From: Puccinia triticina
Taxonomy: Eukaryota; Basidiomycota; Pucciniomycetes; Pucciniales; Pucciniaceae
DNA length: 64,000 nt
Assembly: GCF_026914185.1 (NCBI RefSeq)
Contig: NC_070568.1
Location: forward strand, 1,798,001-1,862,000
Direction: 5' to 3'
The position numbers were made by a program, and so were the translations under genes. Below the pieces are notes generated by a model. That model did no database searches and was not told where the DNA came from. It saw only the letters and a list, made by a program, of their open reading frames with translations. Shown here one piece after another: positions 26,748-60,333 of this stretch; position 1 is the first letter of the stretch, and each line of letters opens with the position of its first letter.

Positions 26748-27678
26748 TGTGGTAGACGGAAAAGTGAAAAATCAAAAGTTTTTTTCTCATACATATATTT
26801 ACTCACAATATTACGCCTCAAGATACCATCAAACAGACCTCAGAAATGGATTCTACGGCCAATTTTACCCCTAGTCACCACTGGAAGCATCACCTGAACC
26901 CCGCTGGATTGGAACCTACACTTCTTTGGACACTGGACACCCATCACACGTTCAACATACCCAGTCACCAGCCTGTCACAAGCCGCAAGTCAAGGATCAC
27001 AGCATTATGCTTATACACATCACAGGATACAAACATACATCTCCCCATCAGACTACAGTCATTACATATTATCAAGTACTCTTCTATTTCCATATTATGA
27101 TGTCATCACACACTGACTCTGCAGCCTCAGAATTCATTTATGCACCCCCTGCATCCACCTGTCAACTCATGCAGTCTACTGTCACTTTACGCAGCCTTCA
27201 TGCGGCCCTACTGCATTCTTATGACATCATTTATGTACCCCTGACACAGTATGACATCATTTGTATCTACTCCCACCAGCTAAAATCCCTCACACTGTTG
27301 TCTAGAGTAGTTGAAACCCTAACCCACAAGCCCTCTGGGGCTCCACTTTTTTCTAGATAAGGAGCTCTCTCCCCCCCAGTTGTCAGCTCCTCAGTTAATC
27401 ACTCACCAATCACAGTCACCCCAACATTTACAGTTACAGTCTTACATATACTTAACAACCTACATACATAACAACCCTTACATTAAAAATAACAACAATT
27501 TATTCAGTGTCATCAACAAGCTCATCTTGAACCAACCAACCCTATCACTTCATTAAATTTTGCCAAGCTTACCTTGGTGGGTCTTGTTATCTGATAGTAT
27601 AGAAGGGCAGAGTTTGCACCTCCATCATCCCCTTCTCCATTCAGCAAAAGGTTCTCAGGAACACTTTTGAGTCTTACA
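26748..27678 (+). repeat. Family A solo LTR inside gypsy RNase H
   Basis: This 931-bp LTR runs TGTGGTAGACGG...GAGTCTTACA in plus orientation, with CCGG on both sides (26744-26747 and 27679-27682). No internal sequence remains, so it arose by LTR-LTR recombination. Removing it restores the RNase H frame. It dates family A activity as later than the gypsy insertion at this site. Confidence 0.9.
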
Positions 27679-28553: not shown

Positions 28554-29569
28554 CGAACTTAACTAAGTCCCTCACTTGCCTGAGGCTATGCCGGAGGGAC
28601 TTATGACTAATCAGGGATTCTCGCATGAGAGATATTTTAGATTTGGTGGTGTTTTCCTTTGAACCACCAAATCTCAACCCTGACCATCCCCAACCTTCTA
28701 AGTTTTTGGTGGATGGTACGTGTGCATCTGCCCCTCCTTCTGATACAATTTCAGACTCCCTCGTCTGCATCTTCACTCTTATATATTTTTTTCAGAACAT
28801 CCATTTCCTTCAAATTCTTGCAGGTTCCACCGGATCAGAAAATAACCGCCTGTGCGCAGACATCTCGAGGTCCCTTCACACTACCAAGATGGATGAATTT
28901 GCTATGTCGGAAATTGATCAATATAGCGTATATTGATCAATTTATATTGATCATTTTCTTTTATTCCTCTTGATACCTTTTTCTGTGTTGCATGTCTCCT
29001 GAAAAGGCTTCTATAATCTCTCTCCTTCCCCCTGTGTTAGCTTCAAGCCACAGGATTTTTTCTTTTCTTTTTTTTGCCTGATAACATTCATAAATTTCTG
29101 CATACACCATTTGATTCTTCATGAAAAAAAGACATTGCAAGTTTTAGGATTAATCCAGGGTGGCTGATCAGGGGTCTCAAAGTTTTTTTCTTTTTCTTTT
29201 TTACTTCAACAATTGATGTTATCAGAAGTCTCCAAATCTACTTTTTTTCAAAAAAAGGAAAAACATTGACCCCTGACCTCTCTCATGATACCATCTTGCA
29301 AACATTGTTAATTTGGTTGGTTGAACTGCCTGAAGATATTGCACATCATACTTGAGGTGCTACATGCATAGAAGGCCTTTTTGAAATTAGTTTACCATGG
29401 TTTAGCATATTTTTGTTGGGTTCTTTGTTTTATCTACTTTTGTTATCACCCACAGATTAATGAGGAATATTTTGACATAAAATTTCATCCAAACATTTTT
29501 CTGCATATAAAACCCAGAAATATTGTGTTTCGGGACACATGCATTATGCAGCAGCTACAATCTGATCAG

Positions 29570-32500: not shown

Positions 32501-33655
32501 CAAATATAACAACTTTGGTAGATTCTTGGTGTTTCTGCCACTATATCTCATCCCAGCGTGGGAATCCTTCTGCCATGTGGTTACCAAAATGTTGAAAGGC
32601 CCCCAAGTATTCATTGCGGAGCTCAAGTCACCACAAGGCCCCCAAATGTAGCAGCTACAGTCTGATCAGTTCCCAAATATCACTACTTTGGTAATTTCTT
32701 GGTGTTTCTGCCACTATATCTCACCCCAGCGAGGGAATCCTTCTGACATATGGTTACCTAAATGTTGAAAAGCCCCCAAGGATTCATTATGGACCTTAAG
32801 TCACCACAAGACCCCCAAATGTAGCAGATACAGTGGGATCAATTCCCAAATATCACTACTTTGGTAGTTTCTTGGTGTTTCTGCCACTATATCTCATCCC
32901 AGTGCGGGAATCCTTCTGACATATGGTTACCAAAATGTTGAAAGGCCCCCAAAAATTCATTATGTACCTTTAGTCACCACAAAACCCCCAAATGTAGCAG
33001 CTACAGTCTGATCAGTTCCCAAATATCACAACTTTGGTAGTTTCTTGGTGTTTCCCACTATATCTCATCCCAGCTTGAGGATCCTTCTGCCATATGGTTA
33101 CCAAATTCTTAGCAGACCCCCAAAGATTCATTATGTACCTTTACTGACCACAAAACCTCCAAATGTAGCAGCTAAAGTCTGATCAGTTCCCAAATATAAC
33201 AACTTTGGTAGTTTCTTGGTGTTTCTGCCACTATATCTCATCCCAGCATGGGAATCCTTCTGCCATATGGTTACCAAAATGTTGAAAGGCCCCCAAGGAT
33301 TCATTATGGAGCTTAATTAACCACAAGGCCCCCAAATGTAGCAGCTACAGTCTGATCAGTTCCCAAATATCACTACTTTGGTAGTTTCTCGGTTTTCTGC
33401 CACTATATCTCATCCCAGCTGGAGGATCCTTCTGCCATATGGTTACCAAAATGTTGAAAGGCCCCCAAGGATTCATTATGGAGCTTAATTAACTACAAGG
33501 TCCCCAAATGTAGCAGCTACAGTCTGATCAGTTCGCAAATATGACTACTTTGGTAGTTTCCTGGTGTTTCTGCCACTATATCTCATCCCAGCGTGGGAAT
33601 AATTCTGCCATATGGTTACCAAAATGTTAACAAGCCCCCAAAGATTCATTATGTA
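29570..33655 (+). repeat. ~173-bp satellite array, forward block
   Basis: About 23-24 monomers of 172-175 bp follow head to tail. Each holds TAGCAGCTACAGTCTGATCA, a TTTGGTAGTTTCTTGGTGTT segment and CATATGGTTACC. The positions of the first motif at about 29894, 30068, 30241, 30413, 30585 and 30760 give the period. A five-monomer block starting near 29571 recurs near 30431 (860 bp apart) with higher identity than neighbouring monomers, a higher-order repeat. Open frames within it repeat with the monomers and are not genes. Confidence 0.92.
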
Positions 33656-34455
33656 CCTTTTTGTAACCATATGGCAGAAGTATTCCCATGCTGGGATGAG
33701 ATATAGTGGCAGAAACACCAAGATTAAACTACCAAAGTAGTGATATTTGGGAACTGATCAGATTGTAGCTGCTACATTTGGACATGTTGTGGTCAGTAAA
33801 GGTACATAATGAATCTTTGGGGGCTATATAATATTTTGGTAACCATATGGCAGAATTATTCCCACGCTGGGATGAGATATAGTGGCAGAAACACCAAGAA
33901 ATACCAAAGTAGTGATATTTGGGAACTGATCAGACTGTAGCTGCTACATTTGGGGGTTTTGTGGTCAGTAAAGGTACATAATGAATCTTTGGGGGTCTGT
34001 TAACATTTTTGTAACCATATGGCAGAAGGATTCCCACACTGGGATGAGATATAGTGGCAGAAACACCAAGAAGCTACCAAAGTAGTGATCTTTGGGAACT
34101 GATCAGATTGTAGCTGCTACATTTGGAGGTTTTGTGGTCAGTAAAGGTTCATATGAATTTTTGGGGGCCTGTAACCATCTAGTAACCATATGGCAGAAGG
34201 ATTCCCACGCTGGGATGAGATATGGTGGCAGAAACACCAAGAAATACCAAAGTAGTGATATTTGGGAACTGATCAGACTGTAGCTGCTACATTTGGGGGT
34301 TTTGTGGTCATTAAAGGTACATGATAAATCTTTAGGGGACTCCAACCATTTCGGTAACCATATGGCAGAAGGATTCCCACACTGGGATGAGATATAGTGG
34401 CAGAAACACCAAGAAACTACCAAAGTAGTGATATTTGCAAACTGATCAGACTGTA
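33656..34455 (-). repeat. ~173-bp satellite array, inverted block
   Basis: Four to five monomers of the same satellite in opposite orientation begin abruptly at about 33660 (TTGTAACCATATGGCAG). They join the right arm of the inverted-repeat unit. The switch point has no spacer. Confidence 0.9.
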
Positions 34456-35335
34456 GCTGCTGCATAATGGATGTGACCCCAAACACAATATTTCTGGGTT
34501 TTCTATGCAGAAAAATTGTCTGATGTAATTTCATGTGGAAATATTAATCCTCATTAATCTGTGAGTGACAAAAAAAGTTGATAAAAAAAAGAACCTGACA
34601 AAAATATGCTAAACCATGGTAAACTAATTTCAAAAAGGCCTTCTATGCATGTATCACTTCAAGTATGATGTGCAATATCTTCAGGAAGTTCAACCAACCA
34701 AATTAGCAATGTGTTCAGGATCGTATCATGATACTGATAGAGGTCAGGGGTCAATGTTTTTCCTTTTTTGAAAAAAAGTAGATTTGGAGACTTCTGATAA
34801 CATCAATTGTTGAAGTAAAAAAAAAAAACAAGAAAAAAAAATTGATCCCCCTCAGCCACTCTGGATTAATCCTAAACCTTGCAGCGTATTTTTTTCATGT
34901 AGAATTGAATGGTGTATGTATAAATTTATGAATGTTATCAGAAAAAAAAAAAAAAAAAATGTGGCTTGAAGCAAATACAGGGGAAGGAGATAGAGCATAG
35001 AAGAGTATTAAGGAGACATGGAACACAGACAAAGGTATCAAGAGGAATAAAAAAAAATTGATCAATATAAATTGATCAATATACGCTATATTGATCAATA
35101 TAAATTGATCAATATACGCTATATTGATCAATATACAACATCGCAAATTCATCCATCTTGGTAGTGTCACTTGATACAACGTTATAAAGGCACGTGCGTC
35201 TCTTTTTTTCACTGATTCCCTCTCCTTAGCTTCGATCATACATCTCCTAGCGCTGATCATTAATCCCCTCCACCGATCAGAATCCTAGTATCCCTTCAAC
35301 GCATACATCCAACCCAATCACCGCCCTACAAGATC

Positions 35336-41816: not shown

Positions 41817-42147
41817 TGATAAGCTGAACTGAGGCTGAGACCAGCGGGCACGAGGCAGGTTGAGTGAGCGATGGGTGTGGAAGGATAATGTCATTTCACA
41901 TCAGACTAGAGAAGCAGGGACAACAGAGAAAGAAAACAAGAGAAAGAGAAAGAGCTACTATACCTGAGACCAGCGGGCACGAGGCGGGTCGAGTGAGCGA
42001 TGGGTGTGGAAGGATGAGGAGAAGATCCTTCCACGCCCGCTGAGCTCAGGTATACTACATACAAGTAAAATGATATGTGAAACCTGGATGAAATGTGTAA
42101 AGCATAGAAAGATAAAGAAAACACAAAATGATACCAATATCTCAACA
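41817..42147 (-). repeat. 3' LTR of the copia element
   Basis: On the minus strand it runs TGTTGAGATATTGG...GCTTATCA and follows directly on the purine tract. It contains an internal duplication of the CCAGCGGGCACGAGGC segment. Confidence 0.9.
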
Positions 42148-42316
42148 CCCCCCCTTGCTGCACACATGAAAACAGAAGACAAAGAAATATGATGGAATAG
42201 AAACAAAGAAGGAGAGAGAAAGTAGGAAGAAAAGTAAATAAATAAAAGAAGTAGAGGAATTAAGGAAGAGGGAAGCCGGAGTGGGTCACGGGAGAGAGAT
42301 GTGAGATGGGGATTAA

Positions 42317-43118
42317 GGGACGATCCCAAAAAGGGTCCGATGTTGTTCAAGCAGAACACGAGCAAGCGGTTTTGTCAACATGTCGGCAACCATATCTTTT
42401 GTTGACACATGAAGCAATGAGATGTCACCCTCCTGCACGCATTCCCGAATAAAATGGTACCGGGCATGAATGTGCTTTGTACGAGCGTGGTGTTTGGGAT
42501 TTTTCGCAAGCGCTTCAGCCCCTTCGTTGTCGACGTGTAGGGGAATTGCGGTGTCCGGGCAGAGACGGAGCTCTGTCAGAAGATGTCAAAGCCATAGTGC
42601 TTCTTTGCAGGAATCTGATAAGGCCTTGTATTCTGCTTCGGTGCTGGAGAGGGATACCGTTGCTTGCTTTCTGGACTTCCAGGAGATTGCTCCATCTCCA
42701 ATGCGGTACGTGTATGCAGAAGTTGACCTTTGATCGTCTCGATCCTCGGCCCAGTCGGAGTCTGAGTAACCTGAGCATACTAGATTGCCACCTAAACGCA
42801 GTTTAAGGTCTTTGGTGGAGGAGAGATAATTTAGGACCCTTACTGCTGCATACAAATGAGCGGCAGATGGATCGCGTAGGTACTGAGAGAGTCGATTGAC
42901 AGTGAAGGAGACATCCGGTTGGGTGCACTGTGAGATCCAGAGTAGCGCACCGATGAGTTGCGGGTAAGGCCCGGGTGATGAAGGATCATCTGGGCGACGG
43001 TGAGTCAGGTTCTTGAAGTTTATATCGGTTGGGATGGCAACTGACACAGGTTCCAATTCTAGGAACCGATTACATATTTCCGAGATGTAATGTCCTTGAT
43101 TGAGGAAGAGATATTGGG
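42317..43118 (-). pseudogene. Copia Pol, C-terminal part: end of RT and RNase H
   Basis: The frame reads QYLFLNQGHYISEICNRF, then PYPQLIGALLWISQCTQPDV and the RNase H region with GYSDSDWAEDRDDQRSTSAY and VSLSSTEAEYKALS. TGA at 42586-42588 follows ALWL, where the family has Arg; the frame continues with ADMLTKPL to about 42317. It is the continuation of 43939-47000 after the inserted 808 bp. Confidence 0.85.
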
Positions 43119-43124
43119 CCGGTA

Positions 43125-43932
43125 TGGAACTCTGGCCGGTGCTAGGCCGGCAGCAGTTTGGGGAGGGGAAAAAAAAGAAAACTGAGAATAGGATGCGTAT
43201 GCCCTCCGGGTGATTGGCCGTGAGTGAGCGCTGAGAGATTCGTGTAAGCGTGGGGGGGGGAGTTGATTTTACGACGGCTGGAGATGCGCGTCGGCGGGTT
43301 TTGTTTTTGAGAGAAAGCCGGGGATACTGCCGGCGGGGTTGTGATCTAAACCAGTAAGGTGGAGGAGATCGGCGTTTTGCGGGGTAAAGAACTTAAAGAC
43401 TTCAGACTTGCGGGCAGACAATTGCCAAGACTTAAACTTAGAATGTTGATGGATAACTGAGAATTTTATGGTTCAGAGTGAGTCCATGCCGCTCCAAAGC
43501 CGGAGTTCGAACTGAACTCAAACCCTGGAGCTCGTGACATCTAACAGACAGCTCATCACAACCTAGCGCGCACGCGCGCGCTACAACAAACAAAACAGCA
43601 GACACAAAACAAAACAAAAGGAAACAAGACAAAAACCAACCCTCCTCATCCAAACCCTATCCAACGCGCGCAGAATGAAAGAGGAAAATAACAAAACATG
43701 ATGAAAGTGAAATAGAAAGGGAACAAAGACATAAAAACAGAAACAAAAAGAAAGAAGGAAAAGAAAACCTGAAACGTCTTGAGGATGCGCGCCACGCCGC
43801 GCCATTGAATCTTGAGGAAGCCTTGAGGGCCGGAAAATTGAAGTCTTGATGTCTTGAATCCTGACGTCCTCTGGCGCGCGCCATGCGCGGAAAAAAGCTT
43901 GATCCTACGCGTGTACCAGATTGTCCACCACA
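43125..43932 (-). mobile_element. 808-bp TG...CA insertion in copia RT, probable solo LTR
   Basis: On the minus strand it begins TGTGGTGGACAATCTGG and ends CCAGAGTTCCA. CCGGTA flanks it on both sides on the plus strand (43119-43124 and 43933-43938), a 6-bp direct repeat. Removing it with one repeat keeps the copia frame (744 bp between reference codons, divisible by three). It contains CGCG-rich tracts and no supportable gene. Confidence 0.75.
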
Positions 43933-43938
43933 CCGGTA

Positions 43939-46900
43939 TATCCCGGGTGATTTGCAGTGAGAGGAAGTGATTGAGATCTTCATTGGCACCTATTTTGAAT
44001 TGCTTGCCAACTGAGGATATGAGGAAATCTATGAAGGACGGTTCACCGACAATAGCTAGATCATCGACGTGCGTTGTCAGTGCACCAATAAGTTTTCCTT
44101 CCGCTAGTTTGAAGTACAAGGTGGGATTGTATTTTGAGTTTTTAAGACCAAGGTTTAGAAGTGCCTTGTGAAGCTCGCGGTTCCACTGGCGGGGTGATTG
44201 TTTTAATCCGTACAGTGAGTGGTTCACTTCGCAGACCCAGTCAGGATGGTGGGGGTCCTCAAAGCCCGGCGGCTGCTCCATGTAGATCAGTTTATTGAGA
44301 TGACCGTTTAAGAAGGCTGTCTTGAAGTCGACTTGACGGCCTTTCCAACCGCGGCTTGCTAGGAGAGAAAAAATGAGGCGGAGTGTTTCCAAGCGAAGTG
44401 TTGGGGAGAATACTTCGTCGTAGTCTAGGCCCTGGACCTGAGAATAGCCCATAGCCCCCAGGCGGGCTTTGAGTTTTTGGATTGTTTGATCGGGTCGGCG
44501 TTTTACCTTGAAGACCCATTTGGACTTGATTATTCTCCTTTTATCCGGACGAGGTACAAGTTTCCAAGTTTGCATTCTTACTAGAGAGGCAAACTCATCT
44601 TTGGCGGCCTTCAACCAGTGGTGTTTGTTTGGGGATTTCAGGAGTTGACGCCAGGTTTTTGGTGTATCGACGTCCGAGTCTACTGTTGCATTCTTTGACC
44701 ATTGGCTGTACCGATCTGGCGCTCTGCGTTCTCGCGCCGAGCGTCGTCGAGGAGGAGGTGAGGGAGGCTTGGGGGACGGGGCTTTTAGCGGCGACGAGTG
44801 AGTGTCCGAGGGCGATTACTGAGGTTTGGCGGCCGGTGATTGGGGTGGTGAGGGGAGGGGGGGAAGAGTGGTGGAGTGATGAGGGGAGGAAGAGAGTGGA
44901 GGAAGTGAGATAATTGAGATGTCAGGGGTAGAGGGATCAGCATGGGAGGATGGTGAGGGAGAATGGAAAGGGGAACGTCGCGGAGAATCAGTTCCTGAGG
45001 AGATTGCGTCCGGAGTGCGTGGGGCATTTCCCGGCGCGTGAATTGAGGCTGTCAGGCGCCGGTCAAAGCGGGGCTGGAGAGGTACGTTCAGCGGTGGCAG
45101 GTCGGGTGTGGCGACCCTGGGGGGTGGAAGAGAGGACGGTGGCGGAGAGCTTGAAGCCAGGGTAGTGGTTGGTTGATGCTGTTCCTCGTGGTTAGGTAAC
45201 TGCGGTGGGGATGGTGGCTGTGGAGAGGAAGTGGTTTCGAGATGAGGCCAGGTAATTTCTACTGTGATTGATTCGGAAGGGGAGTTCAGTTTTGCTCCGT
45301 AGGGGAATGACGAGTCATTGAATATTACATCGCGAGACTTAACAACCACGCGGTTCTTGAGATCCCACAGTCGGAAGCCGTTACCGTCCAAGAGATAAGA
45401 GAGGAGGATCAATGCCCGCCCCTTCTGATCGAGTTTCTTGCGATTTGCCTCTGGTACCTTGTACCACACGAGGCAGCCAAAGGGGAGAAGTTTCTTGACG
45501 TCCACCTCGTGATCCCCCACTATTGACGAGGGAGCCAGAAAACTGTTAGGGGTGTTGCAGGGGAATGAGTTGTAAGGGAAAATTGCATGTCGGAGAGCAT
45601 CGGCCCAGAATGATTTTGGGAGTTTTGCTTGGAGAAGTGAGCATCTCACCAGATTACTGATTGTCCGGTTTGTTCGTTCTGCCACTCCATTCAGTTCCGG
45701 CGAGTGGGGAGGGCCAGGCTCGTGTTTGATTCCTGCAGAAGATAAGTAGGAGGTAAATTGGTTTGATATGTACTCTCTGCCGTTATTGGTGCGAAGAGCA
45801 AGTATTTTGTGGGCACCGGATTTCTCAAAGAAAGCACAAAAGGTTTTAAAGCATGCGAATGAATCGCTATTTAATTTCATAGGGTAGACTTGGAGAAATT
45901 TAGAACAATCGTCGATAAATGTAATGAAGTATTTATACCCTTTGCGGGACACAACCTCATACAAGCCAACGTCTGAGTGGATCAGCTGGCCCGGGAGAGA
46001 TGACCAAAATGCAGAACAAGATCCGAATGACTTTCACGGCATTTTTGACTGAACGCAGATTGCACATTGTTGCACCTCGATTTCATTCATGATTGAGGGG
46101 CTGATGTGGTGGCGTTTCAGAACAGCTTTGAGAGGTTTTAGTCCAATGTGAGAGAAGCGGTAGTGATACGATAGAAGGGAATTGTCAACAGATGGGGAAG
46201 GTAGAGGTTTAGTGGAGTAGGAGCTCACAGGCTCCGCTGCCAGGTAGTACAGGTTTCCGCGTCGGTAGCCTCGGCCTGAGAGAGATCCGGATATTTGAGT
46301 CAAGTCCGAATGGTAGAGATCGCAGGAGGATTTTGTGAAGACTGCAGTGACCCCAGCATCGCACATTGCAGCGATTGAGAGGAGAGGTTCATGAAGGGAC
46401 GGAACAACTAGGGTTTTAACCTTAACATCGCCGTCGATTGGGAGTTTAGCTGTGCCTTTGTGGGTGGCCTCAACTACCGAGTGGTCGGCGAGGCAAACGG
46501 GAGTGTGGTCCGGTTTTGGGTTCTCGACAGACTCTAAGTCAGGAGTCATCGAAAAAGAACATCCGGAGTTGAGATTGGCATTGCCTCCTGCCCGTGCACC
46601 AGGAGAAGCCAATAGGGCAGCGACTGCATTACCAGCGACGACCTCAAGTTGAGACCCAGAGTAGTCAGACTCCTCATCTTCATCGTATCGGTGTGACGAG
46701 TTACCAAGGGTGGCAGCTGAAGTTCGACCCGCCTTAGCGGCTGGTTTAGTCAAGCGATCGGGACGGTTTTCCTGATCCTTTGCTTCTGACCTGGGTTTCT
46801 GACCTGCTTTATGGTTGGCCAGTATGAGACGAGTGTTCCTGCAGTTGTTCAAGTCGTGGCCATCCACGTTGCAGAAATTGCAGTGGCGAGGGAAAGAGGG

Positions 46901-46990
46901 GGGAGGTCGTCCTCCTCAATTGGATGAGTTGAAGGAGGAGGATTTCTTGGCTTGATGTTTAGCCTTAGTTGAGGAGACTGCGACAGGTTA
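43939..46990 (-). pseudogene. Copia Pol, N-terminal part: zinc knuckle to RT
   Basis: A zinc knuckle CNFCNVDGHDLNNC lies at about 46870, followed by the protease region, the GAG-pre-integrase segment (HYRFSHIGLKPLK...CAICVQSK), the integrase core (HSDVGLYEV, AERTNRT) and reverse transcriptase (WVFKVKRR, VDFKTAFLNG, THVDDLAIV). Stops are TGA 46916-46918, TGA 46034-46036 and TAA 44816-44818, all in one frame. The integrase NNGREY motif has Asn where the catalytic Asp of the family sits. A Pro/Ser-rich linker separates integrase from RT. The enzymes would copy and insert the element. Confidence 0.88.
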
Positions 46991-47646
46991 ATCATTGTTG
47001 TAGGTTTTTCTGCGGAGATACTCACTCCGGAGAGCCATGGCGACCTGTTCCGCTGAGATATGGGGCTGATTCATGAGGGAGGAGATGCAATTAATCCAGT
47101 CGCTCGGGAGAGAGTTGATGAGATCCGTTGCGTGGATTTCATCAATGGTGAGGGGTCTTCCTTCGGTGATGAGTTCCTCGAGACGTCCTGCTACTTTGGC
47201 GACAGAGTCGATATGGTCGAGCATGTCTTCGGTCTCCATTTTGGAGGTGGAGAGTTTCCGGAGCCAGTACATGCGGCCTCCGGCCAAACAGTCCTTATGA
47301 GCTAAAGAGCCTCCCACGCCTTGGCAGCATCAGTTCGATGTGGTTTGCTGTAGCGAAAGTTCGTCGGGTCGACGATCTGGGAGAGAAGGGTGCAGACGGC
47401 TTTGTTGTCTCTTGCCCAGTTTGCTGGCTGATTCTCTGGTGGGATGGGCGTAAGGACATACATGAGGTTGACGTTGTCTAGGAGCATCGTAACCTGATAC
47501 TCCCAGTCAGAGTAGTTTGGACCGGAGTCGGCGGCTTTGAGAGTGAGGAGCTTAGCTCCTTGAATCTTTGGGGATGAGTGGTCGTCATTTAGATCAACTC
47601 CGAGGGTGAGAGCCGGTATTGGCTTTGATCCGGAAGCGTCCAACAT
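46991..47646 (-). pseudogene. Copia Gag, frameshifted
   Basis: The N-terminal part starts at ATG 47646 (SGPNYSDWEYQVTMLLDNVN is typical of the copia-type Gag front) and shifts frame near 47310. The rest reads KDCLAGGRMYWLRKLSTSKM...HISAEQVAMALRSEYLRR. TAA at 46988-46990 follows, after which the frame continues toward the zinc knuckle. Gag would form the particle that packages element RNA. Confidence 0.82.
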
Positions 47647-47741
47647 GGTGTGAAGAGAGGTTTGATCCTTCGAGAGAGAACACTATCGCCACTCAATAGT
47701 ACAATATTTAACGTGCGTTGTTGTTCTCAGCTGGAGCCTAG

Positions 47742-47756
47742 CGCGGGCTCATAACC
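47742..47756 (-). promoter_or_regulatory. Primer binding site of the copia element (half-tRNA type)
   Basis: On the minus strand GGTTATGAGCCCGCGC directly follows the 5' LTR. It is complementary to the anticodon region of initiator tRNA-Met (GGGCTCATAACC) and not to a tRNA 3' end. Drosophila copia is known to use such a half-tRNA primer. Confidence 0.65.
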
Positions 47757-48087
47757 TGATAAGCTGAACTGAGGCTGAGACCAGCGGGCACGAGGCGGGT
47801 CGAGTGAGCGATGGGTGTGGAAGGATAATGTCATTTCACATCAGACTAGAGAAGCAGGGACAACAGAGAAAGAAAACAAGAGAAAGAGAAAGAGCTACTA
47901 TACCTGAGACCAGCGGGCACGAGGCGGGTCGAGTGAGCGATGGGTGTGGAAGGATGAGGAGAAGATCCTTCCACGCCCGCTGAGCTCAGGTATACTACAT
48001 ACAAGTGAAATGATATGTGAAACCTGGATGAAATGTGTAAAGCATAGAAAGAGAATGAAAACACAAACTGATACCAATATCTCAAAA
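47757..48087 (-). repeat. 5' LTR of the copia element
   Basis: 331 bp, nearly identical to 41817-42147. The outer terminal bases read CTCAAAA where the other copy has CTCAACA. Confidence 0.9.
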
Positions 48088-48163
48088 CGGAGGCCCCAGG
48101 TCTCTTATAGCCAAAGATGCTGGCCGCACTTGGGTGTCGTGTCTCCACGACGTTCTTGTTGAA

Positions 48164-50540: not shown

Positions 50541-52131
50541 TGAAAAAAAGCCGGCGGGTACCGCTGGTACCTGCCTGGTCCGAGCATTTAATCGTTACAG
50601 TGTTTTTGAAAGCTGAATTTGTACCAGCGCACTGAGATTGGTCTGCAAGTCTTGGGCAGTCCAATTTTTTTTTTTTGCTTCAGGTCAGATCAGAGAGTTT
50701 CTGTCTGGCCACGCAACCTACTTTGTCAAATGGGTGCTGAAAGAAGTGTTCTCAAGTCTTGATGAGTTTGCTGACCTTTTTATTTGGAAACCCAGAACAT
50801 ATGTAAGAGTTGTGTTGGTCCCCGTGGTTTATCTTCATTATGTACAGGAGCTAAGTGGAGGCTTACTGGAGCTCAATATAGTTCATCTGAGCTGAATTGG
50901 TGTGTAGTGGGAGCATCATTGGGATGGATGGCCCAGCTTGACAGGCTGAGTTTGCCTGTACCGGGGCTGAGTTCAGCTGAGTTTTGGAGCTGAATTTGAG
51001 CCGCATTGAGCTGAATTGGCTGTGTCAGAGCTGACCTGAGCTGTGTTTTCAGGAGCTGAGTTGAGCTGTGTGTGCAGGAGCCGAGTTGAGCTGTGTGTAC
51101 AGGGGCTGAATTGAGCTGTGTGTACAGGAGCTGAGCTGAGCTGAGCTGAGCTGTGTGTACAGGAGCTGAATTGAGCTGTGTGTGCAGGAGCTGAGCTGAG
51201 CTGTTGAGTTTAGCTGTGTCTACAGGGGCTGAGCCCAATGGGTATGGTATTATGGATCTCAGCTGGTGCATCTCTGATTCAGCTCACCCATCTCTGCAGT
51301 GAATTTGGCTTCAAGCCAATAATACTGCCAATTTTATCTTTGGTTTGAAGCGGATATATTGGATTCACATAGGTGGCCTGTGCGCGGCACTGATTGCTCC
51401 GTGGACAATTTTACATGTGTTCCAAAATTGATCACCCCACCACCAAGACAATATATTGTTCCAATACAATTAGTCAAGTATTCTATCTGTTACAGTGTTG
51501 ATTCCAGTGTTTTTTGCGAAATTAAATTTTTGACTCCCATTCTGGATAGCACAATTAATTTTCTGACTCCCAAAATTGCCCCGGGTCAATTTGTGGTGCT
51601 GGGGACCGGGGCTGGATGACAAAATCTGGTCTTCCAGATGTCCGCAACATGTGGGAGTTGGAAAGTTAATTTTTGGGAGTCAATTTTTCAACTCCTTATT
51701 TAATTTAAATAATTTTCTAGTGATTTGGGGGTTGAATATCTTCCCCTTGCCTGCCAGCCTGCAGATATTATCCACAAGCCCCTCCAGCGGAGAGCCCCCC
51801 TGGCAAGGTCCCTCGGACCCTCCGTTTGAGAGGCTTGGTTAAGCTAGGGTGAACCTGGGGTGTCCACTGTCACCCATTCTCACCCCAGGCCAAAATCTTT
51901 GGCGCGCCCACTGTACAGGAGAATGTACTATAGCGTGTGTTGTGTCGCGTACAATGTAGGTAAATACAAGGGAAAATGACATGAAAAAGTCAATCTACAC
52001 TTCAAAAAAATCCGGGTTGGTGTGTTTGACAACACAAATAATAATGGAATTAGGACAGGGCAAATCCTCAGCGAGGCCCGTATGGCGGCTACCGGAAAGC
52101 TTGGAAAGGCGGGATTGCTTTTTAGGAGTGA
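50541..52131. other. Gene-free spacer left of the receptor gene
   Basis: There is no supportable gene. From about 50900 to 51235 it holds a degenerate minisatellite of GAGCTGAGCTGTGTGTACAG-like units, listed separately. The part right of 51900 is the downstream flank of the STE3 gene. Confidence 0.45.
50900..51235. repeat. GAGCTGA/TGTGTACAG minisatellite
   Basis: About ten units of 28-36 bp combine GAGCTGAGCTG or GAGCTGAATTGAGCTG with TGTGTGTACAG. Unit length varies by insertion of extra GAGCT words, as expected from slippage. Confidence 0.8.
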
Positions 52132-53508
52132 TCACAGATCGACTACGGCTGACGCACTCCAGTGAGCTTGCGTATTAGAGTTGGCATCAGCGGGAAAGTT
52201 GACGTCATTGCAAAAGGAAAGGTTAAAAGCAACCCACTTTTTTGGCACACCGATTCTTCTCAAAAGCGATTGAGACGGTTGTGATCCCCGCCGCAACCAG
52301 TCCGATGGAGATGGCAGCAAATTGTCCAGGTGGAGGGTGCGCGCAACTTTCACATATACCGCAATCGACTCATTGGCAAAAGAGAAAAAAAAGAACACTG
52401 TTAGACCAGCAGTCACCGAAAGCCAATCCCGAAGGTTGAGTTGGTAGGCAGAGTTCTTGCGAACGTCTGACAGCTGAGATCGGAGTAATTAGTGGGTAAT
52501 TCGACCAATGCTGAGGAAATTCTTTTCTGATTAAAGGCAGTTTGCTAACCTTGTTATCGACATCATGGATGTACCCCCATGATTTCCAAGGAACAAAGGG
52601 GCCAATATCATTAAGAATCGTAACAGTCCCGGCGATTGTGTAAGGAGCTGATATGCATAGATATGTAGCTGCCAAAGCGCACATACGAATGAAGCGTGAT
52701 TTGTTCAGGGGCGTCCTAGACCTGGCTATTAAATGGGATAGTTCGCTGTGCTGGCGGATCAACCAGTAGAGAACGTAGACTGCCCGCAGCGGATAATTTC
52801 AGCACAACGAATGACTTTGGTACCAGGAGGGACTTACGTGCATATCCACAAGCGATACCACACATGATAGGTGACCAAATTATAAAAATAAAGATTGTAG
52901 GCCAGGATAAAACCGATACATTAGAACAGCCAACTAGCGGTTCAACTTCATAACGAGCAACCTGGAACACGACAGACAGAACAGCTATAGCAGCTGGAAT
53001 CCCAAAAGACAACACATAATCGGTCCATATTCTAGCTCGGGCCGTTGAATTATCTTCCAGCGTATTTGGAGTGACTATTCTGGCCAGGTAGCGTATAATG
53101 CAACAATTCGCAATGAGTAATCCTAACGGACCGACCATCGTAAGCTGAGGGTTTATCAAATCAGTATCTGATCGCTTCCATCCGACTTGGAACAAAGTCA
53201 AGTATTAAAAACGAAAAATCGGCCTACCTTGGCAGAAACATCACAAAATATCGGAGCTTTGTCTTGCGCATCGTCCATCCACACAATTCCGTTGATCTAT
53301 GGTAAATCTGATTTGAGCACATGCGGTATTGGCCTGATGAGATGATTGAGTTCGAACCCACGAAGCCCAACAAATTTAAGATAACCACCCAGATTCCAAA
53401 CGCGGCAGGTCCAGAATGACCTTGGATCAGATGTGAGACCGCTGGAGCAATGTTGATCAGGGCGCACAACAGGGATAGTGCCAAGTAGGCGATAAAATCG
53501 GAGGTCAT
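52132..53508 (-). CDS. STE3: STE3-type mating pheromone receptor
   Basis: A seven-transmembrane G-protein-coupled receptor for lipopeptide mating pheromone at the plasma membrane. Five exons: 53508-53362, 53296-53228, 53144-52838, 52779-52550 and 52473-52132. Introns of 65, 83, 58 and 76 bp, all GT...AG and in phase, give 364 residues, normal for STE3. Exon 1 carries TM1 and most of TM2. The exon 1/2 junction creates NLLGF/INGIVWMDDAQDKAP, followed by IFCDVSAK, the family's W-D...P..CD signature. Then come GPLGLLIANCCIIRYLARI (TM3), DYVLSFGIPAAIAVLSVVF (TM4), VGCSNV, TM5, SRFIRMCALAATYL (TM6), PWKSWGYIHD and TM7 (WLSVTAGLTVFFFFSFANES). The tail is short. I chose the start at MTSDF because TM1 follows directly. 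No stop or frameshift is present, unlike the TE genes around it. The divergent neighbour is the pheromone gene. Confidence 0.9.
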
Positions 53509-54165
53509 GTTGGAGGAGGGAGATAGTCTGCGTGATAGGGATGATAAGAATGAGGAGAAATAAGCGACCCAGAGATCGAGGGCCTTTACCTGACTAGCTG
53601 ACTGGACTCCAAGAGTTAATGGTGCTGCACATTTTGACAAAGGAAACCTGCGTCAGGGTGTGCGTAGGCCCGTATGTAGCAGCCTCACATGCTGGAAAAG
53701 GAATTCATAAGAAGCTCGAAGTTTCCGGTTTTCATAGTTGTACATATTTGTTTAGATTTAAAGGGGTGAATACATAAATCGGTACATATTTGCATAGTTA
53801 GAATGAATGGCTCTACCAAAAATATTTGATTGCACCTATGTATTTACATACATACGACCTGCGAAAGGATGTGCAATAAATTCGTATGTATGTAAGTTCT
53901 TGTGTATGCATAATTCATCTTAATTCATAGACGTTTTTCTTTTGTTTGCATCGATTACGTATTTTAAATGCATACGACCTACATCCATATGCAGCCCGAC
54001 CCTCCAGTATATGTATGTATGTGTATAGCACCCATACATATTCATTTTGCCTCGGGCCCAAAAACATTTTAAATGGAGGCGACACGATCTTCATAGATCT
54101 TCATACATGAATAGATCTTCATGTATGTGAATATGTATGTACATAACGTGGTCATGTACTCCGAA
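53509..54165. promoter_or_regulatory. Divergent intergenic region between receptor and pheromone genes
   Basis: 874 bp separate the two start codons. The region is AT-rich with many ATACATAC and TATGTATG words (about 53810-54140) and a duplicated ATAGATCTTCATRYATG segment near 54090-54130. Both promoters must lie here or in the adjacent repeat. I do not recognise a confirmed pheromone-response element. Confidence 0.5.
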
Positions 54166-54255
54166 GCTTTTCCACTCCGTTTGAGTTTTGTTTTCGCTGA
54201 TACATAGTTTGTTCATATGGCTTTTCCACTCAGTTTGAGCGATTTTTTTTCGCTG
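54166..54255 (+). promoter_or_regulatory. Duplicated 35-bp promoter motif upstream of the pheromone gene
   Basis: GCTTTTCCACTCCGTTTGAG followed by TTTTCGCTG occurs at 54166 and again, slightly changed, at 54220, a spacing of 54 bp. A TATA-like GTATAAGAA follows the second copy at about 54255, roughly 120 bp before the start codon. The duplication looks like a paired upstream regulatory site. Confidence 0.5.
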
Positions 54256-54381
54256 TATAAGAATTCCTAGCGGTCCTCAGCAAATCTGCAGCGACTTCAG
54301 CCTCTACTCCCTTCGTCCAGCGTTGGAACAGCCCGAAAGCAACTCTGTCATCCGATTGTGATCAAGAAGAAAATCATCGCC

Positions 54382-54483
54382 ATGTCATCAGAATCAAAGG
54401 ATACCATCTCTAAAGGACATCCCTGGCCAGTGGGAGCATCAGGTGAAATCGGGGGCGGTAATCATTACTGCATTATCTGCTAG
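54382..54483 (+). CDS. mfa: CaaX lipopeptide mating pheromone precursor
   Basis: A 33-residue protein starts at ATG 54382 and ends with TAG at 54481-54483. Its last residues are GGGNHYCIIC, a Cys-aliphatic-aliphatic-X box for farnesylation, removal of the last three residues and carboxymethylation. The N-terminus (MSSESKDTISK) is polar as in other precursors, and the mature peptide would be a short stretch ending in ...HYC. It would be secreted and bind the STE3 receptor of the opposite mating type. It is divergent from the receptor gene, with start codons 874 bp apart, as at basidiomycete P/R loci. A possible intron-like GT...CAG follows the stop in the 3' region. The length is too small for homology to be decisive; the C-terminal motif plus context carry the call. 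Confidence 0.8.
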   Translation: MSSESKDTISKGHPWPVGASGEIGGGNHYCIIC

Positions 54484-55186: not shown

Positions 55187-55447
55187 TTGATGGTGACCGG
55201 ACCGCTAAGGGTAGGTCGCCTAGGTCCAAGCACGCGAGCTTGTGGAGCCAGGCCCAAACCGGGGAGTCGGAGATGACGTCAGTGGCGCGGCCCGCGAACC
55301 TTACACGCGTACCTCCCCTGACTCAGCCCAAGTTTCAAACCTTAAGCTTCCCAGTCCCCATCCAGGTCCCACCATCCACAACTCTCCCCGACAGTCTCGC
55401 TATTTCACTATCATCACTATCACTGCTGGTAGCAGCTCCTATTTTTG
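55187..55447 (+). repeat. A1 repeat
   Basis: 261 bp starting TTGATGGTGACCGG and ending CTCCTATTTTTG, nearly identical to 59697-59957. Confidence 0.9.
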
Positions 55448-55510
55448 AGACATCTAACGAGCTCCTATTTTTGCGATTTTTGCGACATCTAACGACTGAT
55501 CGACGAGAAG

Positions 55511-57317
55511 ATGGTAGAAGAGATGGTCAAACGAGTAACTAGAAGATTGGCGCCGAAGCAACCTACCACAGGAGGTATATCGTCGACAAGAGGCGGAAGA
55601 GAAGTCGATGAAGGACATGCCGAGGAAGATGATAATTTAGCCAAGGGACCCTTGAACAGTTCGTGATAAACAGATAACAGCCTAAGTTGTTGGCTTGTTC
55701 ATTAATAACAAGATTTCTTTTCGGTTTTTGGTAGCCGAAAGACCCTCAACGAACGATCGTGATGGGGAAGCGAGCAAGACGAGCGTTGTACAATTGGATT
55801 CCACAGACAGTGAAGGCAGTGATACCTTCGAAGGTCAGCCTTCTAATCAGCCCTCTAAGTTGTTGAGAGGCGCATATAGATTGATATCTCCTCGAGATTA
55901 AGAATATATCATTGACGATGCCATCTTTATGAATTGTTCGGTTTATTCAGAGATTCCCGCCACCAGTGCTGAGCAGTCTGTGGCGGCGAAGTATAAGGCG
56001 ATACTGTCGAACGTACCGAGAGTAGAGATCGGAAACGACGATATCATAGTGACGAAAGACCCTGCCAAGGCCGTCCGTAATCCTTCCTTACAATTGCAAA
56101 CTCCGGATAGCCCTCTCAGAGACGAGTCGGTACCAGTCGTGAAGACAGACAAAGAAATCATGTGGGAGAAGTTCGCCGAGGCGGTAGCGAAGGGTAATAA
56201 GGTCGAAGCAGATTATTTTTACAGAATCTATAAGACTTTGGCAACCTTAGAAGAGTCCACTTCAATCAGCGATAAAGTGACAGTTGCGACTTCTGGTACC
56301 CTTTTGAATGTGGCTAAACCAGACATTCTACGATCAAAGTCTACAGACATACCTAGTCTTCCCACCTCGGTGGCAAAGCGGTCGAATGAGAAAACGACCA
56401 TAGTCTTTATAAAGGGTTCTCTTCCGAAGCATTTCGATGTAGGATTCACCCCGTACTTCGACAAGAATATCCGTGAATTTAGAGGTCCTCTCCCGTTGAC
56501 GATTTTCGACAAGGATTGGCAAGAAGACGCAATCCAAGCACACACGAATAAGAGATCTAGATCTGACGAAAAAGATGGAAATTATACGGGTTATGAGTAT
56601 CCAAACGAGTGGACTCAAACCTTTGCTAAATGGACTTCTAATCATCGTAATTTCTATTGAACCTATAAGGATTTCTATAATTTCCCCGAGTTTGCTGAGT
56701 GGATTTTACAACATAAGGCGAACGTCGATTACATCATTGAAGAACACAAGTTTCTTACGGGCTTTCGCTACGATATGATTATACGACAGAACGCTTTCTC
56801 ATATCAAGTCCCAATTAACGAAGGTGTCGTTTCAGCGGTAGATATCTCGGTATTCAGAGAAGATGTTCGGCTTAGGGCATACAATGTGACGAAGGATTTG
56901 AATGAGCTGGACTTCACCGATAATCCTTATGCCTATGGTGGGAAGAAGTTCGGTTGTGACCCAAAAACTGGAAGGCCAAAAGAATCGAAATCTAAGGCAA
57001 ACGAAGAATTTACGGGACGTAATGATGTTAGGTCCTCGAGCCGTGGGCGAGGTGGTTTTCGGGCACGAGGCTCTGGAGATCGTTTCGGGATGGATAGAAG
57101 AAACTCTGACTACGGCGGGTACACGGATTATGGTCAAGATGATGGATATAAGAGGACTCGCGATTGTTTTGAAGAGGACTACAACGAGACGTCAGGTGGT
57201 TATCACAGAGGTTATGCCGGGGGAGGACGAGGTAGTTTCAGGCAACAGGGCCCTTCTAGACAAACCGGCAAAAGAGACTCGGGATCAAAGTCTGCCAAGG
57301 AGAAAGACCCTCAGTAG
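55511..57317 (+). pseudogene. Gag-like protein of the split-repeat element
   Basis: A possible first exon (ATG 55511) is followed by a GT...AG intron ending at about 55735. From there one frame runs to 57317 and is interrupted by TAA 55899-55901 and TGA 56658-56660, both explainable by C-to-T change. The middle includes TPYFDKNIREFRGPLPLTIF and PNEWTQTFAKWTSNH. The C-terminal 120 residues are rich in Arg, Gly, Asp and Tyr (SSSRGRGGFRARGSGDRFGM), a nucleic-acid-binding type tail. No Cys/His knuckle is visible. Confidence 0.65.
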
Positions 57318-57492
57318 GCTCTCCTCTTTATTCTCCTTTTTGGGAAATCAAAATTTTTATTTTTTTTCGGGATGTGAAATGTTTTTTACAATACGAAAAA
57401 GCCGAGTCCGAGTGTCATTCGTGATCTCTATCAAAACATGTTATTTTGATGATTAGTTTGTCTGAAGAAACTTTTGTGTTTTTTCTCCTCTT

Positions 57493-59229
57493 TTGCCCGT
57501 GTGGGTTTTTTGTTTTGACAGCGTTCATAGTAATCTACCTCTACCAAATAGCGTGTGCCACGTGACGCGCCGTCCGCAGAGTGCTAAAACACCCGATGAG
57601 AAGTTTTGGCCTTCGACGGTATCCTGTGAGATGGTTTTGGTTGAATGGGAAAAATCATTGGCTGAGTACGGGCTACTCGATGAGTATCCGGACGTACTGC
57701 TAGGTTTTGAATGCGGTTTCGATCAGGGTATCCCTGAGCACGTCGTACAAGGGATGGAGTTCTTTACGCCTGATAATCACAGATCTTCAGAAGCTGTCAG
57801 GGAAAAGATAGAAGACTCAATCAACAAAGAGCTTGCAGCACGAAGGATGTTCGGACCTTTTTCTCAGGGAGAGGTATCTCGTAAATTAGGCTTTTTTCGA
57901 TCGAACCCACTCGGAGCAGTCGTAAACAACGACGGGGCAATACGGCCAATTAATGACCTGTCTTACCCGTGGAATGACGTTAACGTGAAATCGGTAAACT
58001 CGTTTGTGGACAAGTCGAAATTCGGAACAACCTGGGATGATTTCAGCACGGTATCAAGATTCTTCGCGGAAGAGCCAGGCAAAGTAGAACTTGCCCTATT
58101 TGATTGGGAGAAAGCCTACCGGCAAATTCCCACCAGAATGGACCAATGGCGATACCTATTGGTAAAAGACTTTGAAGGAAATTTTTTACTGGACACACGA
58201 ATAACTTTTGGCGGGGTGGCCGGCTGCGGGTCTTTTGGTCGACCAGCGGACGCGTGGAAATCAATAATGAAAGCGCATTTCGACTTGATTACCGTCTTCC
58301 GATGGGTTGATGATAATTTATTTGTCAGGGCCCTGGGCAGCAAGACAGACATGCGTGAAGTGATCCGGAAATCAAAGCAGCTCGGAGTTTTGACGAATGA
58401 GAAGAAATTCTCACCTTTTTCACCAGAACAGAAATTCATCGGTTTCGTATGGAACGGAATCGACAAGACAGTCCGCTTGCCAGACGGTAAGGTGGGAAGA
58501 AGACTCGAGCAAATGGCACCTTTCCTGATTGAACGGAACCTTTTCAAGTACGAAGACGTTGAAGTACTGGCAGGGAGGCTGAATCACGTGGCTTACCTGC
58601 TACCGCATTTGAAATGCCATCTGAACTCATTGTATCGCTGGTTGATGTCGTGGCAATACAGAAAAGCAACAAGGCACCCTCCGAAAGACGTGTTGAAGGA
58701 CTTGGCCGTCTGGAAAGACGCGCTGGAGAATTTTGAATATACACGAATCATCAACTACGGGCCTCCAGTCGATATAGGTTGGGTAGGTGACGCGTCAACA
58801 TCTTTTGGCATAGGTATAATGATCGGGAGGCAATGGGCGCAATTCAAACTTCTCGACCAGGGAGGCAACCCACGGCGCATCTCTTATCTAGAGACGGTGG
58901 CAGTGAGACTCGGCTTACTCATGCTCACAAAGCTGCGGTCTCAACGGGGGAAGACCCTAGTGGTGTGGACAGATAATACCACTACCGAAAATAGCATCAA
59001 TAATAAGAAGTCTCGAGACATCCACGCGAATGACGAGTGGATGCAAATTCAGCGTATCCTCATCGACAACGGCATCAATCTGGTTGCGAGAAGGGTAGCG
59101 TCAAAGGACAACATAGCAGACGCCCTGTCAAGGGGCATCCGGTCTGGACAGGATGTGCGCAACCAGGTGGTGATTGACGTTCCGTTAGACCTGCGGGAGG
59201 TCCTGACCCAAGTTGTTTTTAGCATTTAG
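57493..59229 (+). CDS. Reverse transcriptase/RNase H of the split-repeat element
   Basis: 578 codons without interruption. Reverse transcriptase features are GAIRPINDLSYPWNDVNVKS, the LALFDWEKAYRQIP motif, FGGVAGCGSFGRPADAW and the catalytic FRWVDDNLFV. RNase H follows with IGWVGDASTSFGIGI, ETVAVRLGLL, VVWTDNTTTENSI and SKDNIADALSRG. The GDAS and DNTTTENS pattern is that of DIRS/Ngaro-type enzymes. It would copy element RNA into cDNA for recombinase-mediated insertion. The true start may be further in, because the first 30 residues are unremarkable. The frame is intact, so this is the best-preserved TE gene in the window. Confidence 0.88.
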   Translation: MPVWVFCFDSVHSNLPLPNSVCHVTRRPQSAKTPDEKFWPSTVSCEMVLVEWEKSLAEYGLLDEYPDVLLGFECGFDQGIPEHVVQGMEFFTPDNHRSSEAVREKIEDSINKELAARRMFGPFSQGEVSRKLGFFRSNPLGAVVNNDGAIRPINDLSYPWNDVNVKSVNSFVDKSKFGTTWDDFSTVSRFFAEEPGKVELALFDWEKAYRQIPTRMDQWRYLLVKDFEGNFLLDTRITFGGVAGCGSFGRPADAWKSIMKAHFDLITVFRWVDDNLFVRALGSKTDMREVIRKSKQLGVLTNEKKFSPFSPEQKFIGFVWNGIDKTVRLPDGKVGRRLEQMAPFLIERNLFKYEDVEVLAGRLNHVAYLLPHLKCHLNSLYRWLMSWQYRKATRHPPKDVLKDLAVWKDALENFEYTRIINYGPPVDIGWVGDASTSFGIGIMIGRQWAQFKLLDQGGNPRRISYLETVAVRLGLLMLTKLRSQRGKTLVVWTDNTTTENSINNKKSRDIHANDEWMQIQRILIDNGINLVARRVASKDNIADALSRGIRSGQDVRNQVVIDVPLDLREVLTQVVFSI

Positions 59230-59376
59230 AAAGCGCCTCAGCTTCGATTGCAATTTAGCCCTCAGAATGATTTTTAAAGCTACGGACGTTTGCGGTCTGA
59301 GTGGTCGGAGTTCGGAACTAAGGGTCGAAGTAAAGGGGGCTCGCGTAGGCTCAGGCTTCACCCTGAGTTAGTGGTG

Positions 59377-60333
59377 TAGCACTACCCCCCCTTATCTCTC
59401 CGCTGTTGTGACAGCGGCCCTCTGTTTCCTCTCTGCCCCAGGAAGAGAGTCTCTCTTCAGATCATGATCCCACGACCCAAGAGGCTAGCCCTCGGACGCG
59501 ATCACATTAGATGATCTACGAAACCTAGAGAGGTTTTTCCAAAGAGCTCTCCACCGAGACCCAAACACCGAGCCCGGTGAAAACCTACACGCCAATAGGG
59601 ACCACCGGGATCTACGGCCGGACCCTGACTGCCCCCGGCAGCAATGTCCCGGCCGGAAAAGTGTGCTAGAGTGAAACGGAGCGGAGACGGCTTGGATTGA
59701 TGGTGACTGGACCGCTAAGGGTAGGTCGCCTAGGTCCAAGCACGCGAGCTTGTGGAGCCAGGCCCAAACCGGGGAGTCGGAGATGACGTCAGTGGCGCGG
59801 CCCGCGAACCTTACACGCGTACCTCCCCTGACTCAGCCCAAGTTTCAAACCTTAAGCTTCCCAGTCCCCATCCAGGTCCCACCATCCACAACTCTCCCCG
59901 ACAGTCTCGCTATTTCACTATCATCACTATCACTGCTGGTAGCAGCTCCTATTTTTGCGGCCACCCACCCTCCCTTTCGCTGTCGAACTCTCCTTTTGTT
60001 TAGATGGCAAGGATAGCACTACCCCCCCTTATCTCTCCGCTGTTGTGACAGCGGCCCTCTGTTTCCTCTCTGCCCCAGGAGGAGAGTCTCTCTTCAGATC
60101 ATGATCCCACGACCCAAGAGGCTAGCCCTCGGACGCGATCACATTAGATGATCTACGAAACCTAGAGAGGTTTTTCCAAAGAGCTCTCCACCGAGACCCA
60201 AACACCGAGCCCGGTGAAAACCTACACGCCAATAGGGACCACCGGGATCTACGGCCGGACCCTGACTGCCCCCGGCAGCAATGTCCCGGCCGGAAAAGTG
60301 TGCTAGAGTGAAACGGAGCGGAGACGGCTTGGA
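59377..60333 (+). repeat. B1-A2-B2 repeat block
   Basis: B1 59377-59696 and B2 60014-60333 are 320 bp each and start TAGCACTACCCCCC. A2 (59697-59957) lies between them, with a 56-bp spacer before B2. Short frames in it are duplicated accordingly and are not genes. Confidence 0.9.

What the first reader, a model, noticed from the sequence alone, without database searches (positions are those of the whole stretch)
52132..54483. A probable P/R mating-type locus: intact STE3 receptor beside a CaaX pheromone gene
A complete five-exon STE3-type receptor gene and a 33-codon gene ending in CIIC are divergently arranged with 874 bp between start codons. Receptor plus pheromone in tight linkage is the defining content of a basidiomycete P/R locus. 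It is embedded in the most TE-inflated part of the window, as expected for a non-recombining mating region.
Basis: partly seen in the sequence, partly recalled or inferred. Interest (0 to 1): 0.95.

Follow-up and report, generated by a model that had tools for sequence, protein, structure and literature searches.

The report
Known mating receptor-pheromone locus, leaf rust
This is the already described pair of mating genes (a pheromone receptor and a pheromone) of the wheat leaf rust fungus, found intact, so it is ordinary, although a pheromone-like gene carried by mobile DNA elements elsewhere in the same genome is unexpected.

Summary
The window is Puccinia triticina Pt15 haplotype A. On the minus strand a complete STE3-type receptor gene runs from 53508 to 51995. 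The 386-residue protein matches PTTG_09751 of race 1 at 384 of 386 positions. On the plus strand mfa2 (54382-54483) encodes 33 residues ending CIIC. The start codons are 874 bp apart, as printed for isolate Pt64. This is the known STE3.2-2/mfa2 pheromone-receptor (P/R) locus. A tree separates it from the chromosome-1 paralog and from STE3.2-3. The search found only two STE3 loci in haplotype A. The pair lies between two LTR elements. Already known. Side lead: three copies of a Helitron-like repeat in this haplotype carry a 20-codon ORF with the core WGNGSHYC, as in the opposite pheromone class, but its cysteine is one residue too far from the end for a CaaX box. Function is untested.

The parts
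53362..53508 (-). STE3.2-2 receptor exon 1 (start codon at 53508)
   Evidence: GTGGGT..CCATAG intron follows; collinear with P0001
53228..53296 (-). receptor exon 2
52838..53144 (-). receptor exon 3
   Evidence: PF02076 hit at C11:1850836-1851156
52550..52779 (-). receptor exon 4
   Evidence: PF02076 hit at C11:1850517-1850783
52238..52473 (-). receptor exon 5
   Evidence: P0001 has ..VPKNSLECVSRS.. across this junction
51995..52166 (-). receptor exon 6 with the stop; protein end ..HTNPDFFEV
   Evidence: gene span 1514 bp equals the Pt64 STE3.2 span
53509..54381 (.). 873-base divergent spacer, probably the shared promoter region (inferred), with short direct and inverted repeats (TACATACATACGA type; a 29-base repeat at 54166 and 54220)
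54382..54483 (+). mfa2 pheromone precursor, MSSESKDTISKGHPWPVGASGEIGGGNHYCIIC, 33 aa plus stop
   Evidence: one match in the haplotype; fits Ptmfa2 as described in print (33 aa, CAAX)
41817..48088 (-). Ty1/copia LTR retrotransposon: LTRs 41817-42148 and 47757-48088, RVT_2 and integrase frames between; CGGAG beside both ends by eye
55187..59957 (.). second LTR-type element: terminal repeats 55187-55447 and 59697-59957, 99.6% identical; 3 of its frames (within 55902-59226) scanned, no Pfam match; no target-site duplication seen by eye

Best explanation
This is the PR (a) mating-type locus, STE3.2-2 / mfa2 allele, of P. triticina. The receptor is a G-protein-coupled receptor of the STE3 family. 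It should sit in the membrane of the haploid cell and bind the prenylated pheromone made by the opposite allele (mfa1/3, linked to STE3.2-3). mfa2 makes a precursor that should be prenylated on the CIIC cysteine and trimmed to a short lipopeptide recognised by the STE3.2-3 receptor. Linkage of a receptor to a pheromone it does not recognise gives non-self recognition. Shown here: gene structures, family membership, divergent layout, tree position, one match for mfa2, and no STE3.2-3 found in this haplotype. Inferred from the literature and the family: ligand pairing, prenylation, suppressed recombination, and the role in cell fusion or nuclear pairing.
For: PF02076 248.3 bits; 384 of 386 residues identical to PTTG_09751; tree position; CIIC end and one match in the haplotype; 874 bp spacing and 1514 bp gene span equal to Pt64; Cuomo 2017 describes a 33-aa Ptmfa2 divergent from STE3.2; only two STE3 loci found in haplotype A, the other being the chromosome-1 paralog at 34.7% identity over 213 residues; both PF05920 homeodomain hits lie on contigs other than C11.
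Against: Table 2 of Luo 2024 labels PTTG_09751 as STE3.2-1, the non-mating paralog. By sequence PTTG_09751 is this mfa2-linked receptor and the chromosome-1 gene is another protein, PtA15_1A291; I read this as exchanged identifiers but did not see PTTG_28830. Luo also prints mfa2 as 34 aa and on the same strand as STE3.2-2, and writes of 'Pt 15 hapA with STE3.2-3'; here mfa2 has 33 codons plus stop, the strands are opposite, and the assembly of haplotype-A size holds the mfa2-linked receptor. Cuomo prints 605 bp between the genes. The Pt64 paper finds STE3.2/mfa2 on both haplotypes. No expression or ligand data were examined.
Confidence: 0.94

Rival explanations
1. The receptor is the non-mating paralog STE3.2-1, as the identifier in a published table would suggest, and its neighbour mfa2 is coincidental.
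For: Best hit is PTTG_09751, listed as STE3.2-1 in Table 2 of PMC10977897; Cuomo found two allelic SNPs with two non-synonymous changes in PtSTE3.1, and this receptor differs from PTTG_09751 at two residues.
Against: STE3.2-1 is on chromosome 1 and without a linked mfa in the same paper; the haplotype has a separate chromosome-1 STE3 gene that groups with other rust STE3-like proteins, 100/100; mfa2 is 874 bp away, as printed for STE3.2 in Pt64.
Confidence: 0.03
2. A relict or silenced copy: the receptor frame is intact but the locus is not functional.
Against: The early end comes from keeping intron 5; the full 386-aa frame is open and 99.5% identical to race 1; expression of the receptor and of Ptmfa2 is reported in print.
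Confidence: 0.02
3. Assembly misphasing: the locus belongs to the other nucleus of Pt15.
For: Luo writes 'Pt 15 hapA with STE3.2-3', while this assembly of haplotype-A size holds STE3.2-2.
Against: The sentence is ambiguous. The Pt15 assembly paper shows a read-depth test of phasing and used Hi-C maps of two other isolates to confirm chromosome structure (passages). It would not change what the genes are.
Confidence: 0.08

Closest known systems
P. triticina PtSTE3.2 / Ptmfa2 (Cuomo 2017, PMC5295586; Wu 2021 Pt64, PMC8358450; Luo 2024, PMC10977897)
   Same: Same species, gene content and divergent layout; 33-aa CAAX precursor (Cuomo); 874 bp spacing and 1514 bp receptor span (Pt64).
   Different: Two residue differences from race 1 PTTG_09751 (S308L, D364N, window residue first); spacing of 605 bp printed by Cuomo; same strand and 34 aa for mfa2 printed by Luo, not borne out here.
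Ustilago maydis a2 locus (from Cuomo's text and recall)
   Same: Linked STE3-type receptor and CaaX pheromone.
   Different: lga2 and rga2 lie between the two genes there; Cuomo found no homologues in Puccinia, and here there is only the 873-base spacer.
STE3.2-3 / mfa1/3 allele of P. triticina
   Same: Same receptor family; 53.5% identity over 288 residues to PTTG_09693.
   Different: Separate clade; its pheromone genes lie 0.24 and 0.27 Mb away in Pt76; not found in this haplotype.
STE3.2-1 paralog on chromosome 1 (PtA15_1A291)
   Same: PF02076 receptor; first three introns at similar places by eye.
   Different: 34.7% identity over 213 residues, no mfa reported beside it, separate clade.

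Membership tests
STE3 pheromone receptor (PF02076) | Match over the whole profile above the curated cut-off | tested here: met
   248.3 bits against 29.2, profile 2-292 of 292
STE3 pheromone receptor (PF02076) | Seven transmembrane helices | tested here: inconclusive
   A crude hydropathy scan gives overlapping hydrophobic stretches between residues 1 and 183 and at 274-295; helices were not resolved
STE3.2-2 clade of rust receptors | Groups apart from STE3.2-1 and STE3.2-3 | tested here: met
Basidiomycete P/R locus | Receptor gene tightly linked to a CaaX pheromone precursor gene | tested here: met
   874 bp start to start, CIIC end
Basidiomycete P/R locus | Heterozygous with a different receptor in the partner nucleus | not testable with these tools
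   Haplotype B not held; STE3.2-3 not found in haplotype A; print reports both alleles in 154 of 154 isolates but also one pair on both haplotypes of Pt64
Basidiomycete P/R locus | Suppressed recombination around the pair | not testable with these tools
   One haplotype only; reported for the cereal rusts in print
Tetrapolar system | HD and P/R loci on different chromosomes | tested here: met
   Both PF05920 hits are off C11: C1:2700802 (43 bits, not followed) and C3:2291677 (29.4 bits, in a 495-aa frame); beside the latter a divergent frame looks HD2-like by eye only
CaaX lipopeptide pheromone (mfa2) | C-terminal C-a-a-X and short precursor | tested here: met
   ..NHYCIIC, 33 aa
CaaX lipopeptide pheromone (mfa2) | Prenylated, secreted and bound by the partner receptor | not tested
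   No biochemical data examined
Helitron (side lead outside the window) | 3' hairpin followed by CTRR, insertion before T | tested here: met
   12 of 14 3' ends read CTAG then T; the flanks differ by eye; the C4 and C13 copies begin A|TCCAAG. Terminal rules recalled
Helitron (side lead outside the window) | RepHel helicase in an autonomous copy | not tested
   Not sought
mfa1/3-class pheromone (side lead) | Strict CaaX end | tested here: not met
   ..SHYC[V/A]ITL*, cysteine fifth from the end in 3 of 3 copies

The most novel reading that the evidence does not exclude
In the nucleus that carries the STE3.2-2 receptor, Helitron-like elements have captured and spread a gene for a pheromone-like peptide of the opposite class (core WGNGSHYC, as in P. 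graminis MFA3). If expressed and processed, the cell would make a self-stimulating or decoy ligand for its own receptor from outside the mating-type locus; if not, it is a mobile fossil of a mating gene. The captured-fossil half seems likely to me; the statement scored here is that the copies are expressed and affect mating signals.
Probability: 0.06. Interest if true: 0.75.

Novelty: already known. Interest (0 to 1): 0.22.

Why it matters
The locus decides which haploid cells, and perhaps which nuclei, of a major wheat pathogen can pair, so a correct gene model and correct identifiers are useful: the six-exon structure, the opposite-strand layout and the probable mislabelling of PTTG_09751 can be fixed in annotations. 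The Helitron-borne pheromone-like ORF, if confirmed, would show a mating-signal gene leaving its mating-type locus by transposition.

Tried and rejected
Rfam on the window gave nothing at gathering scores. The PDB sequence search gave 3 hits, all chance-level (E 0.53-0.92). A U. maydis-type pheromone response element (motif recalled) was looked for between the genes: ACAAAGGG 0 hits, ACAAAGG 1 hit at 53637 against 0.18 expected at window density, too little to build on. The protein search for pheromone relatives found no candidate. Rejected: the non-mating paralog reading (tree and location) and the relict reading (open 386-aa frame). The Helitron-like family was only sampled: 14 3' ends within 2 mismatches of a 31-base probe. 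Of these 14, 3 carry the 20-codon ORF, 5 keep only the 200-202 bases upstream of it, and 6 were read over 2.4 kb without finding the ORF. One search also lists 11 further matches, to the part downstream of the ORF only; one of them, C6:2698182, belongs to one of the 6.

Papers: PMC10977897 - outline with abstract, sections 6, 7, 8, 10, 12, 14 and found passages read; PMC5295586, PMC8358450, PMC6838127, PMC10601111, PMC9927501, PMC10627818 - found passages only; all others seen as search listings. That the Helitron-borne ORF is not in print rests on the searches only; the listed papers were not opened for this.

Full report
What the window is. The window is contig C11, 1798001-1862000, of an assembly of 122,823,596 bases in 18 contigs. 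Those two numbers are those of haplotype A of Puccinia triticina Pt15 in Table 1 of PMC9927501, which numbers chromosomes by length; that C11 is chromosome 11A follows from that order and was not checked otherwise. The best hit for the chromosome-1 STE3 gene is PtA15_1A291 on a contig of 9,207,429 bases, the length of C1.

The receptor. A six-exon model on the minus strand (53508-53362, 53296-53228, 53144-52838, 52779-52550, 52473-52238, 52166-51995) gives 1161 coding bases and 386 residues, with GT..AG introns of 65, 83, 58, 76 and 71 bases. It is collinear with P0001 (PTTG_09751, race 1) and differs at two residues, S308L and D364N, window residue first. Pfam gives STE3 with 248.3 bits for that 364-aa version. 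Cuomo 2017 reports five introns and 379-395 residues for these genes, and the Pt64 paper's coordinates give the same 1514 bp span.

The pheromone gene. The ORF 54382-54483 on the plus strand encodes 33 residues ending CIIC. It is the only one of 504 ATG-started ORFs of 20-80 aa in the window with a strict aliphatic CaaX end; 9 of the 504, this one included, fit a looser definition. A DNA search of the haplotype found only itself. Cuomo describes a 33-aa Ptmfa2 divergent from STE3.2, and Pt64 prints 874 bp between the two; Cuomo prints 605 bp. Luo 2024 prints 34 residues and the same strand; the sequence here shows opposite strands and 33 codons plus a stop.

Which STE3. The protein searches returned 30 and 9 homologues for the two STE3 genes of this haplotype. 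A tree of 38 rows (37 of the 39 homologues plus the window; P0030 and P0035 were left out as short) puts the window with PTTG_09751 (100/100), inside a 9-row set (100/98) and an 11-row set (98/95). The set holding PTTG_09693, labelled STE3.2-3 in print, is separate (7 rows, 96/84), and so is the set holding the chromosome-1 gene (8 rows, 100/100). Identity is 99.5% to PTTG_09751 over 386 residues, 53.5% to PTTG_09693 over 288 and 34.7% to PtA15_1A291 over 213. Table 2 of Luo 2024 lists PTTG_09751 as STE3.2-1 and PTTG_28830 as STE3.2-2. By sequence and position PTTG_09751 is the mfa2-linked receptor, so I think the two identifiers are exchanged there; PTTG_28830 itself I did not see, and the paper search found both identifiers only in that paper.

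Haplotype content. PF02076 gave 5 exon matches at two loci, this one and the chromosome-1 one, with 8 of 8 candidates scored. STE3.2-3 was thus not found, as expected if the P/R locus is heterozygous. PMC10627818 reports both alleles in all 154 isolates examined. Against this, the Pt64 paper prints STE3.2 plus mfa2 on both haplotypes with one residue of difference, and Luo writes of 'Pt 15 hapA with STE3.2-3'. Haplotype B is not held, so I could not settle it. PF05920 gave two homeodomain hits, both off C11: C1:2700802 (43 bits, not followed) and C3:2291677 (29.4 bits). At the second, the hit lies in a 495-aa frame and a divergent frame looks like an HD2 gene by eye, so I take it as the HD mating locus.

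Surroundings. A Ty1/copia element lies at 41817-48088, with LTRs 97.9% identical over 332 bases and CGGAG beside both ends by eye. A second LTR-type element lies at 55187-59957, with terminal repeats 99.6% identical over 261 bases, starting 704 bases after the last base of mfa2. Only 20 of the 39 stop-to-stop frames of 150 aa or more were scanned with Pfam. The pair therefore sits in a gap of about 7 kb between two LTR elements, in line with the TE enrichment reported for the locus, but a Ty3 element and a large satellite array lie elsewhere in the window.

How it most likely works. Following the family (established knowledge): the receptor detects the prenylated pheromone from the opposite allele, mfa2 supplies the ligand for STE3.2-3 cells, and linkage of the non-matching pair gives non-self recognition. 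In print, expression is reported in the sexual and wheat-infection stages for the receptors and in several stages for Ptmfa2, and late in asexual infection for Pra genes of other cereal rusts. I did not test function.

Side lead. To ask whether this haplotype also holds the other pheromone class, I searched it with a degenerate pattern for W-G-N-G-S/T-H-x-C, from the mature peptides QWGNGSHMC and QWGNGSHYC printed for P. graminis. There were three matches, identical over 24 bases, and none for the reversed control; a second pattern without the W but with two aliphatic codons after the Cys gave 2 matches, the C4 and C13 copies, control 0. Each lies in a frame MPGPSN[A/S]KWGNGSHYC[V/A]ITL followed by a stop. 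The copies on C4 and C13 lie in a 3.77 kb repeat, 99.4% identical, with ends A|TCCAAG and GCGGCGCAGCCGC-TTTATCCT[C/G]TAG|T, Helitron-type by recalled rules. The repeat also carries a transportin-3/importin-13 fragment (PF24138, 55.1 bits). The C11 copy is diverged and carries inserts. Of 14 3' ends found in the haplotype, 12 read CTAG then T, 3 carry the ORF, 5 keep only 200-202 bases upstream of it at 82-88% identity, and in 6 read over 2.4 kb the ORF was not found. The cysteine is fifth from the end in 3 of 3, so a CaaX box is not met, and expression was not examined. The pattern could miss a diverged mfa1/3 gene, and whether the ORF descends from one is inferred from the core alone.

Verdict. 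The exon count and 3' end need correcting. The Helitron-borne ORF is the only unexpected item.

Noticed in passing
L035:7656 (G000 C4:3848655), L036:7656 (C13:311418), C11:5564976 (minus strand): Pheromone-like 20-codon ORF with core WGNGSHYC and a near-CaaX end inside a Helitron-like repeat, 3 copies in the STE3.2-2 haplotype; 5 further copies keep only its upstream region.
   Followed up: partly
L035:4429-8194: The same Helitron-like element carries a fragment of a transportin-3/importin-13 gene (PF24138), so it appears to have captured at least one host gene piece.
   Followed up: partly
window 29546-34465: 173-base satellite, about 24 copies on one strand followed by about 5 copies in the opposite orientation, head to head.
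   Followed up: no
PMC10977897 Table 2 against P0001: PTTG_09751 is printed as STE3.2-1 but is the mfa2-linked receptor by sequence; the identifiers PTTG_09751 and PTTG_28830 are probably exchanged.
   Followed up: partly
window 54166-54248 and 53840-54145: Short direct and inverted repeats in the receptor-pheromone spacer (29-base repeat with GCTTTTCCACTC, and TACATACATACGA-type arms); the one response element looked for, ACAAAGGG, was absent.
   Followed up: partly
window 6153-6755, 12353-12955, 26875-27357: A 161-201 aa frame starting SPLEASPE occurs three times, with 525-base inverted copies 96-97% complementary; the third lies between two frames of the Ty3 element; two of the three were scanned, no Pfam match.
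   Followed up: no
G000 C1:2700802-2700888 (minus strand): A second homeodomain hit (PF05920, 43 bits), stronger than that of the presumed HD mating locus on C3.
   Followed up: no
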